Assembly (NCBI GenBank): GCA_000787465.1
Contig: JSYX01000005.1
Span: 1 to 64,000, forward strand
Direction: 5' to 3'
DNA: 64,000 bases
DNA from: Thermomucor indicae-seudaticae
Taxonomy: Eukaryota > Mucoromycota > Mucoromycetes > Mucorales > Lichtheimiaceae
Positions 34,496 through 37,354 of this stretch are shown in pieces. The position numbers and the translations under genes were made by a program. How positions within the stretch are numbered: position 1 is the stretch's first letter; every line of letters begins with the position of its first letter. The notes beneath the pieces were generated by a model. It was not told the origin of the DNA. It worked only from the letters and a program-made list of their open reading frames with translations, and did not search any database.

Positions 34496-35981
34496 ATGGC
34501 ATCCGAAAATAAGAAAGCGCTTGTATTCTCAATTCTCGAGTTTCTTCAGAAATCATGCCAGGATGGAACCATAAGTCCAGATGACACTGAAGGAATTGAA
34601 GGTATGTCCTGGCGTGCTTCAATTGATCACGGAATTAACGCGTGTCGCCAGTGGCCATGCAATGCATTGGTGAAGCCTTTGGTGTCGACCTGAATGATCC
34701 CGCTCAGCAAGAAGCCTACAGCACCAAACCAGCGAACCTTTTGTCCATTTTTGACGTATACCTAAAGACCAAATCCAAGAACAAAGGCCAGGTAAACTTT
34801 TTTTTCACACGTAGAAGTTGATAAGAGAGTATAAGAATGCTGAAGCTCCCTCTGTATGAAAAAAAAAGGCTGCCGCTAGCTCCTCCTCTTCCGCTGCACC
34901 TGCACGTAAGTGTTGATAATTACTCTAAGAAAGAGAGAACGGGACTGACGTGGTTTTCACATTATTAGCGGTAAGGCCAGCCGGACATGATGCGTTTAGG
35001 AAATGCTAGCTGGGCTGATAGATCGATGCTGTAAAATAGAAGGAAGTCTCAGAAGAAGATAAGCAAAAGGCTGAAGAGCTCAAGGCCGCAGGTAACCGCA
35101 AGGTTGCAGAACGAAACTATCCCGAAGCCATCAAGCTTTATACCGAAGCTATTGCACTGAATCCCAACCAGGCCGTGTACTATGCTAACCGGTTTGTGTT
35201 CGATCCATATGATTGCGAGCTGGGGTGTGTGTATACTCAATGCGTTTGCCTGGAAATTTAGTGCTGCTGCCTATAGCCAACAGGGAGATCACGAGAAAGC
35301 TGTCAGCGATGCCAAGCGTGCCATAGAGGTCGATCCACAGTATAGCAAGGGCTACAGTCGATTGGGGTAACGTGCACTCGGAGGGTACAAAGAAAAAAGA
35401 AGAAACCTCACATATCATTCATTCATTCATTATTAGACATGCGTTGTTCTGTCAGGCCAAATACCAAGAAGCGGTAGACGCGTATGAAAAGGGTTTAGAG
35501 TTGGACCCAGAAAATGCGACCATCAAGTCTTCATTGGCCACGGCCAAATCAAAGCTTGGTAGCGTGGACCGTTCAGCGAACGAGGGTAGTGGATCATCAA
35601 CACGTGGCACCGACGGTGCCGGTGGCATGCCAGACCTGAGTGCGTTACTGAATAACCCGGCATTGATGAATATGGCGCAACAAATGATGCAGTCTGGTGC
35701 TTTGGACCAATTGATGAACAATCCAAACATTGCACAAATGTAAGTATCTATCCGTATTGATTGTCTTGTACGGCTCGGTATTGACACATGGAGTGTATAG
35801 GGCACAGCAAATGATGGGTAACGGCGGTGGAGGTCTTGCGGAAATGCTGCGGAATCCAGAATTAATGAATATGTAAGCAGTTTTCCCCATTGTCAATCAA
35901 GGAAGATATATAGCTTCTAACAGGGACTGTAGGGCTCGTCAATTCATGGGAGGAAACAATAACAACCAACGGAACAATTAG
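34496..35981 (+). CDS. SGT2: SGT2/SGTA TPR co-chaperone of the GET pathway
   Basis: Nine exons (34496-34601, 34652-34791, 34869-34905, 34969-34970, 35040-35191, 35262-35366, 35437-35739, 35801-35872, 35933-35981) sum to 322 codons. The N-terminal dimerisation domain ('KALVFSILEFLQ', 'CIGEAFGVDL') binds Get5/Ubl4. Three TPRs follow: 'AEELKAAGNRKVAERNYPEA', 'AAAYSQQGDHEKAVSDAKRA', 'AKYQEAVDAYEKGLELDP'. The C-terminal Met/Gln/Asn-rich part ('MNMAQQMMQSG') binds tail-anchored clients. Sgt2 hands tail-anchored proteins to Get4/5 and Get3. The frame between exons 3 and 5 is restored only by a 2-nt exon (34969-34970) flanked by perfect splice sites; see findings. Confidence 0.92.
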
Positions 35982-37241: not shown

Positions 37242-37354
37242 TAAATCAATAAAAAAATCAGGGACATGACTTGGAATTTTATCTTTGCTCCTGATTCATA
37301 TGGGAATATAAAAGGGTGGGGAAAAAAAGATGAGGGAGGTGAAAAAAATAAAGG

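What the first reader, a model, noticed from the sequence alone, without database searches (positions are those of the whole stretch)
34906..35039. A 2-nucleotide exon appears necessary for SGT2
Exon 3 of SGT2 ends in phase 1 at a GTAAGT donor (34906) and the TPR-encoding exon beginning 'KEVSEEDK' starts in phase 0 after the acceptor at 35039. Removing the whole 134-bp interval breaks the frame. Inside it, a perfect acceptor (ATTATTAG, ending 34968) is followed by CG and then a perfect donor (GTAAGG, 34971). Using both gives introns of 63 and 69 bp, both typical here, and a 2-nt exon CG that completes a Pro codon ('APAP|KEV'); the nine exons then total exactly 322 codons. Exons this small are extremely rare, and a recursive-splicing site is an alternative explanation.
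Basis: partly seen in the sequence, partly recalled or inferred. Interest (0 to 1): 0.75.

Follow-up and report, generated by a model that had tools for sequence, protein, structure and literature searches.

The report
Two-letter exon in fungal SGT2
A fungal gene for SGT2, a helper protein that guides membrane proteins to their place, is predicted to contain an exon only two DNA letters long, which would have to be spliced in for the full protein to be read correctly, making it one of the smallest exons proposed so far.

Summary
Exon 3 of SGT2 ends in phase 1 at 34905, the TPR exon starts in phase 0 at 35040, and the 134-nt gap holds AG|CG|GTAAGG. A rough splice model trained on 250,655 nt of this genome, with no protein evidence and no exon-length limit, chose the 2-nt exon unaided. 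With SGT2 left out of training it was best of 1201 in-frame routes. The best route lacking this exon is 11.1 nats lower, and the best lacking its acceptor 13.3 nats lower. Of 192 modelled introns none is 120-150 nt and 149 are 55-75 nt, like the proposed 63 and 69. None of 4000 shuffles and none of 4000 noncoding fills scored as well. A Umbelopsis ramanniana protein, from another order, appears to carry the same two-base gap, judged from its out-of-frame linker. No RNA data or orthologous DNA were reachable, so inclusion is unproven. The nearest rivals are a stwintron-like route to a weak acceptor (35046) and joint skipping of exons 3 and 4. One-nucleotide exons are known in plants and Fusarium, so this is a new member of a known kind, possibly deeply conserved.

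The parts
34496..34601 (+). SGT2 exon 1 (start codon at 34496)
   Evidence: translation and homology; SGTA_dimer domain residues 5-70
34652..34791 (+). SGT2 exon 2, ends in phase 0 (GGC CAG|GTAAAC)
34869..34905 (+). SGT2 exon 3, 37 nt, Ala/Ser/Pro linker, ends in phase 1 (GCA C)
34906..34968 (+). upstream intron, 63 nt, GTAAGT...ATTATTAG, branch-point-like GACTGAC with its A 20 nt before the end; total score at the 93.6th percentile of this genome's modelled introns
34969..34970 (+). predicted 2-nt exon CG; completes codon C|CG (Pro95)
34971..35039 (+). downstream intron, 69 nt, GTAAGG...AAAATAG, branch-point-like GGCTGAT with its A 21 nt before the end; total score at the 73.8th percentile
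35040..35191 (+). SGT2 exon 5 (KEVSEEDK...), starts in phase 0; first TPR exon
35045..35046 (+). rival acceptor (GGAAG|TCT); joined to donor 34906 it keeps the frame without CG (141 nt removed) but scores below all modelled acceptors (0.0 percentile)
35262..35366 (+). SGT2 exon 6
   Evidence: homologs share NRAAA across the junction
35437..35739 (+). SGT2 exon 7
35801..35872 (+). SGT2 exon 8
35933..35981 (+). SGT2 exon 9, with stop codon

Best explanation
The 134-nt gap between exon 3 and the TPR exon of this SGT2 gene most likely consists of two ordinary introns of 63 and 69 nt flanking a predicted constitutive 2-nt exon, CG (34969-34970), which would complete a proline codon (C|CG) and restore the reading frame. 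Both flanking introns carry a donor, branch-point-like site, acceptor and length typical of this genome (shown). An exon of 2 nt cannot hold both splicing complexes at once (general knowledge), so the introns are inferred to be recognised one by one (intron definition). Upstream-first removal is the likelier order, because joining C to CG raises the score of the downstream donor from the 61st to the 82nd percentile (computed; the order itself is inferred). Skipping CG or retaining either intron puts a stop codon soon after the linker and leaves a piece of 97-107 residues that holds the dimerisation domain but no TPR, so inclusion would be needed for the TPR and C-terminal parts.
For: Exact sequence and phases. 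A gene finder trained on 250,655 nt of own genome with no exon-length limit chose the 2-nt exon unaided in both training settings. With SGT2 left out of training, 192 modelled introns: 149 are 55-75 nt, 0 are 120-150 nt, 5 are 130 nt or longer. The 2-nt-exon route is best of 1201 in-frame routes (up to 3 introns of 40-250 nt, weak sites dropped), posterior 0.954. The second to fourth routes use the same exon with a neighbouring acceptor or donor. The best route without the CG exon scores 3.75 against 14.86 (11.1 nats lower: a 7-nt exon 34969-34975 with a GC donor), and the best without acceptor 34968 scores 1.58 (13.3 nats lower). 0 of 4000 shuffles and 0 of 4000 noncoding fills reach the score. 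The gene looks single copy: 6 of 33 own-genome matches are this locus (83-97% identity), the other 27 are 22-53% identical TPR-like stretches. U. ramanniana P0017 has an annotated linker QPLPSLLLPPLH|KEVSEDDKK; 11 of its 12 residues (L, P, H, Q, R) can have codons that begin with C, and the only windows with 10 or more of 12 among 59,901 windows of 176 proteins are three overlapping ones in P0017. Read one base earlier, 10 of 11 codons can be, and 5 of 11 must be, A, S, P or T, with one base left before KEV. Joining window exon 3 directly to exon 5 gives the same kind of peptide, LPLAPPLPLHLH|KEVSEEDK. Two Umbelopsis-like JGI proteins have Pro just before KEV (P0013 and P0016, AKPKEV).
Against: No RNA evidence was reachable. 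No orthologous genomic DNA was found, so conservation of the exon itself is inferred from protein models. The model carries no penalty for tiny exons; with an explicit prior of 1e-5 the odds over joint skipping fall to about 6 to 1. The same model also called tiny exons that I do not believe: a 1-nt exon at 37315 in the first version and a 4-nt exon in L019 in the second. In SGT2 itself it misplaced the exon 5/6 junction and missed exon 9. The genome-wide pattern GTAAGT-N40..70-YAG-NN-GTAAG is not enriched: 10 matches on both strands against 25 for the reversed control. Nine of 17 Mucorales and Umbelopsis models show no disturbed linker, and whether they have this exon is unknown.
Confidence: 0.88

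Rival explanations
1. Stwintron-like or single-intron removal: everything from 34906 to 35046 is removed, either as one 141-nt intron or by first taking out 34971-35039 and then an external 72-nt intron ending at AAG|TCT; nothing of CG is kept and the linker reads AAPA-LSEEDK.
For: Keeps the frame. After removal of the downstream intron the external intron would have a typical length of 72 nt. Stwintrons are established in fungi (PMC5639578, passages).
Against: The acceptor scores at the 0.0 percentile in the single-intron form and the 1.1 percentile in the two-step form, and it lies behind earlier AG dinucleotides. Scores are 15.7 nats (single intron) and 6.5 nats (two-step) below the 2-nt exon. 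It replaces P-K-E-V by L, whereas relatives mostly keep an acidic residue and V, I or L before SEED-like letters.
Confidence: 0.05
2. Joint skipping: exon 3 and CG are not exons, and one 248-nt intron (34792-35039) is removed, giving KNKGQ-KEVSEEDK.
For: In frame, 308 residues; the best route that does not use acceptor 34968.
Against: 13.3 nats lower. A 248-nt intron would exceed the longest modelled intron (235 nt, where 250 was the limit set). Undisturbed orthologs mostly keep an A/S/P-rich linker at this place. Possible as a minor isoform.
Confidence: 0.03
3. Assembly error or pseudogene: an indel in exon 3 or exon 5, or a real frameshift, makes the 134-nt gap look out of frame, and it is one intron.
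For: Draft assemblies can hold indels; exon 3 has simple TCCTCC-like sequence. No reads were available to check.
Against: A 134-nt intron would itself be odd (0 of 192 modelled introns are 120-150 nt), and the internal AG-CG-GTAAGG with two fitting branch-point-like sites would be a coincidence (0 of 8000 controls). The rest of the gene is open and conserved.
Confidence: 0.03

Closest known systems
1-nt exon of Fusarium CYP621A P450 genes (PMC12940212, whole text read)
   Same: Fungal gene; phase clash between neighbouring exons solved by an ultra-small exon inside a gap about twice the usual intron length (139 nt there, 134 nt here); transcript models of the orthologs wrong at the joint, all but one there.
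   Different: 1 nt rather than 2 nt; an Ascomycota P450 of unknown function; supported there by 18 SRA reads, by 24 aligned sequences and by an intronless relative, none of which was available here.
1-nt exons of plant APC11 and VPS55 (PMC4674806, first of three parts read; PMC8831610, passages)
   Same: Frame-restoring ultra-small exon between two regular introns, missed by annotation.
   Different: Plants; 1 nt; shown there by cDNA, RNA-seq or RT-PCR, and for APC11 by reporter constructs.
Stwintrons (spliceosomal twin introns; PMC5639578, passages)
   Same: Fungal double intron in one gap that needs two consecutive splicing steps.
   Different: In a stwintron the internal intron splits a splice element of the external one and nothing is kept; here two complete introns lie two bases apart and the two bases are kept.
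Recursive splicing / ratchet points (search listing only; definition recalled)
   Same: Acceptor and donor almost touch.
   Different: A ratchet point has AG|GT with nothing between; here CG lies between and is needed for the frame.

Membership tests
ultra-small (1-3 nt) constitutive exon | complete acceptor upstream and complete donor downstream, with fitting branch points and intron lengths | tested here: met
   both introns at the 93.6th and 73.8th percentile of modelled introns; lengths 63 and 69
ultra-small (1-3 nt) constitutive exon | reading frame fails without it | tested here: met
   stop after 101 residues if CG alone is skipped; other in-frame routes exist but score at least 11.1 nats lower as genomic parses
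ultra-small (1-3 nt) constitutive exon | present in mature mRNA | not testable with these tools
   no RNA data; a 16-base string across the spliced junction does not occur in the genome, so no exact retrocopy
ultra-small (1-3 nt) constitutive exon | conserved in orthologs | tested here: inconclusive
   protein-level inference for U. ramanniana only; no orthologous DNA found
stwintron | internal intron interrupts donor, branch point or acceptor of an external intron and the whole complex is removed in frame | tested here: inconclusive
   removal of exactly 134 nt is out of frame; an acceptor-side form to 35046 is possible but 6.5 nats worse; a donor-split form would have to make a GT across the joint, which reads C|CGGT (sequence)
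recursive splicing ratchet point | acceptor and donor directly juxtaposed (AG|GT), no retained bases (recalled definition) | tested here: not met
   two bases CG lie between AG and GT and are needed for the frame
SGT2/SGTA co-chaperone | SGTA dimerisation domain plus TPR repeats plus a Met/Asn/Gln-rich C-terminal part | tested here: met
   PF16546 residues 5-70 and several TPR models above cut-off; 9llv_A, SGT2, residues 5-314; C-terminal NNPALMNMAQQMMQSG stretch conserved

The most novel reading that the evidence does not exclude
A two-nucleotide exon in SGT2 is shared across Mucorales and Umbelopsidales, is missed by many gene models, and acts as an on/off gate for the GET-pathway co-chaperone: splicing it in yields the full protein, while skipping it yields an isolated dimerisation domain (101 residues) that could sequester Get5.
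Probability: 0.2. Interest if true: 0.75.

Novelty: new member of a known kind. Interest (0 to 1): 0.55.

Why it matters
If transcripts confirm it, this adds a 2-nt case to the 1-nt exon known from Fusarium, in a conserved co-chaperone gene rather than a rarely expressed P450. It would set a strict test for how two introns that nearly touch are both recognised, and it would help explain why several SGT2 models in related fungi look wrong at the same place. RNA-seq of the fungus can settle it if reads are mapped with the junction supplied.

Tried and rejected
Recursive zero-length ratchet: rejected because the frame would stay broken. GC donors in exon 3: in frame but low-scoring. Paralog or retrocopy as proof of the spliced junction: none found. 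Genome-wide search for more 2-nt exons by pattern: no enrichment (10 against 25 in the reversed control). The first version of the gene finder merged SGT2 with the genes downstream and called a 1-nt exon at 37315; I retuned penalties, after which that call was gone and the 2-nt exon of SGT2 remained. A 4-nt exon called in L019 was rejected as a likely misparse of a gene whose N-terminus looks like a Zn2Cys6 regulator (recalled). Reading the retained-intron-like peptides of Phascolomyces, Apophysomyces, Spinellus and Pilobolus back to DNA was tried by hand and gave no firm answer. In one search the control for codons forced to A, S, P or T was uninformative (P0017 has only 5 of 11 forced, and 0 of 7658 windows had 10 or more); the control replaced it. 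The frame label printed for the stwintron routes is faulty; frames are taken.

Literature: searches were. Within the listings I saw (30 of 725 papers, 15 of 7,192, all 16, none) no 2-nt exon in a fungal gene came up; the single hit for '2 nt exon' is an HLA-F paper, not opened. The library holds open-licence papers only. [quoted passage not shown] 16, Volfovsky 2003, not held). PMC8042270 and PMC11121469 were looked at by passages only; [quoted passage not shown] pombe.

Full report
What is there. The window lies on contig C5 of a 24.77-Mb, 735-contig assembly. The gene at 34496-35981 encodes SGT2: PF16546 SGTA_dimer at residues 5-70, TPR repeats from about residue 100, and a PDB match to SGT2 over residues 5-314 (9llv_A). 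The closest protein found is from Zychaea mexicana, Mucorales, Lichtheimiaceae, at 79% identity, so the organism is likely one of the Mucorales. In the own genome 6 of 33 matches are exons of this locus (83-97% identity) and the other 27 are TPR-like stretches at 22-53%, so the gene looks single copy in the assembly.

The phase clash. Exons 1, 2 and 3 read 34496-34601, 34652-34791 and 34869-34905; exon 5 starts at 35040. Exon 3 ends with one spare base, C; exon 5 starts at a codon boundary, AAG GAA GTC. Between them lie GTAAGT...ATTATTAG (34906-34968), CG (34969-34970) and GTAAGG...AAAATAG (34971-35039). With CG the nine exons give 966 nt, 321 residues and a stop. Without CG translation stops after 101 residues; retention of the upstream intron gives 97, of the downstream intron 107. 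Leaving out exon 3 and CG together (39 nt) keeps the frame with 308 residues.

Is it more than chance. I built a simple gene finder and trained it on the window plus 19 loci of the same genome, 250,655 nt in all, with no protein evidence and no lower limit on exon length (loci, where 19 of 20 requested stretches existed). In its last round, among the 56 genes scoring above 20, it had 199 introns (median 63 nt) and 148 internal exons, of which two were shorter than 19 nt: the 2-nt exon here and a 4-nt exon in L019 that I judge a misparse. The first version also chose the 2-nt exon, but it merged neighbouring genes and called a 1-nt exon at 37315 that vanished on retuning. With SGT2 left out of training there are 192 introns: 149 are 55-75 nt, 0 are 120-150 nt and 5 are 130 nt or longer. 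The upstream micro-intron has a total signal score at the 93.6th percentile and the downstream one at the 73.8th, with branch-point-like GACTGAC and GGCTGAT 20 and 21 nt before their ends.

Routes compared. I listed in-frame routes from exon 2 to the TPR exon with up to 3 introns of 40-250 nt, GT or penalised GC donors, and very weak sites dropped: 1201 routes. The 2-nt exon is first at 14.86 (posterior 0.954). The second (11.82), third and fourth use the same CG exon with a neighbouring site. The best route without it scores 3.75 (11.1 nats lower) and is itself a tiny exon, 7 nt, with a GC donor. The best route that avoids acceptor 34968 is joint skipping of exons 3 and 4, at 1.58 (13.3 nats lower). 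The in-frame acceptor 35046 scores -0.79 (15.7 nats lower). Without the branch-point term, the length term or both, the 2-nt exon stays ahead of joint skipping and of the 35046 route; only these three were rescored. With a prior of 1e-5 against such an exon the odds over joint skipping are still about 6 to 1. Filling the inner gap with dinucleotide shuffles (4000) or noncoding DNA of this genome (4000), with the gap's first 6 and last 32 bases kept, never gave as good a frame-restoring small exon. The model is my own and rough: it misplaced the exon 5/6 junction of SGT2 (35224/35277, where homologs support 35191/35262) and missed exon 9; neither touches the routes compared.

Relatives. Protein models were, from the best 120 rows of each of three searches. 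In 17 NCBI-named Mucorales and Umbelopsis models, 8 have four or more of F, I, L, M, V, W, Y, C in the linker (P0005, P0007, P0009, P0015, P0017, P0020, P0022, P0024), against 2 of 28 NCBI Mortierellomycotina models (Fisher p 0.003). The threshold was chosen after seeing the rows. Left out of the 17: P0019, P0021 (which is disturbed too) and the non-NCBI rows P0010, P0011, P0013, P0016. Left out of the 28: P0044 (JGI) and P0056 (not parsed). Order membership of most rows is recalled from their names. This is suggestive only: models can fail here for other reasons, and nine of the 17 pass this test.

The clearest relative is Umbelopsis ramanniana P0017 (order Umbelopsidales): its linker reads QPLPSLLLPPLH directly before KEVSEDDKK. 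Eleven of these 12 residues are L, P, H or Q, whose codons begin with C (for Leu, four of its six codons), and no other protein of 176 has a stretch with 10 or more of 12 residues from L, P, H, Q, R. Read one base earlier, 10 of 11 codons can be, and 5 of 11 must be, A, S, P or T, the kind of linker seen in clean orthologs, with one base left over before KEV. Joining exon 3 of the window directly to exon 5 gives LPLAPPLPLHLH|KEVSEEDK, the same kind of peptide. So U. ramanniana likely has the same two-base gap at the same codon; this is inference from protein letters. The Umbelopsis-like JGI proteins P0013 and P0016, each a full ORF on contigs of at most 2455 and 2515 nt and so probably transcripts, have Pro before KEV, as C|CG gives here.

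How it works. Two introns that almost touch cannot be recognised across a 2-nt exon; this is inference from general knowledge of splice-site binding. Each is therefore inferred to be recognised as an intron unit. If the upstream intron leaves first, the downstream donor changes from GCG|GTAAGG to CCG|GTAAGG and rises from the 61st to the 82nd percentile, which favours that order. Skipping CG or keeping either intron stops translation after 97-107 residues, past the dimerisation domain and before the TPR. A shortened protein of that kind could compete for Get5, but that is speculation; the role of the Sgt2 N-terminal domain in Get5 binding is recalled (search listing only).

Compared with what is known. 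[quoted passage not shown] Stwintrons (PMC5639578, passages) are the other known way for a fungal gap to hold two introns, but they keep nothing; the two-step form possible here needs a poor acceptor (1.1 percentile) and is 6.5 nats worse. The string pattern is not enriched in the genome (10 against 25 in the reversed control), so there is no sign that this is a common device of the genome.

Verdict. It is a new member of a known kind. RNA evidence is the missing piece.

Noticed in passing
P0005, P0007, P0009, P0015, P0017, P0020, P0022, P0024: Database models of SGT2 from related fungi show intron-like or out-of-frame peptides at the same linker; these annotations probably need correcting.
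   Followed up: partly
window 35192-35261: The exon 5/6 intron has a weak GTTTGT donor (16th percentile) and the lowest total score of the gene's introns (4.3 percentile), although homologs support it.
   Followed up: no
G000:C304:16523-16587 (minus strand): Another GTAAGT...ACAG-CG-GTAAG arrangement with the same two bases CG between acceptor and donor; coding context not examined.
   Followed up: no
L019, minus strand, about positions 140-920: A gene whose N-terminus looks like a Zn2Cys6 regulator (recalled) was parsed with a 4-nt exon by the model; probably a misparse, true structure not worked out.
   Followed up: partly
window 34859-34868: The intron before exon 3 ends in a run of nine A followed by G, an unusual acceptor context; exon 3 (37 nt) is itself small, so exons 3 and 4 together form a 39-nt in-frame block that could be skipped as one.
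   Followed up: partly
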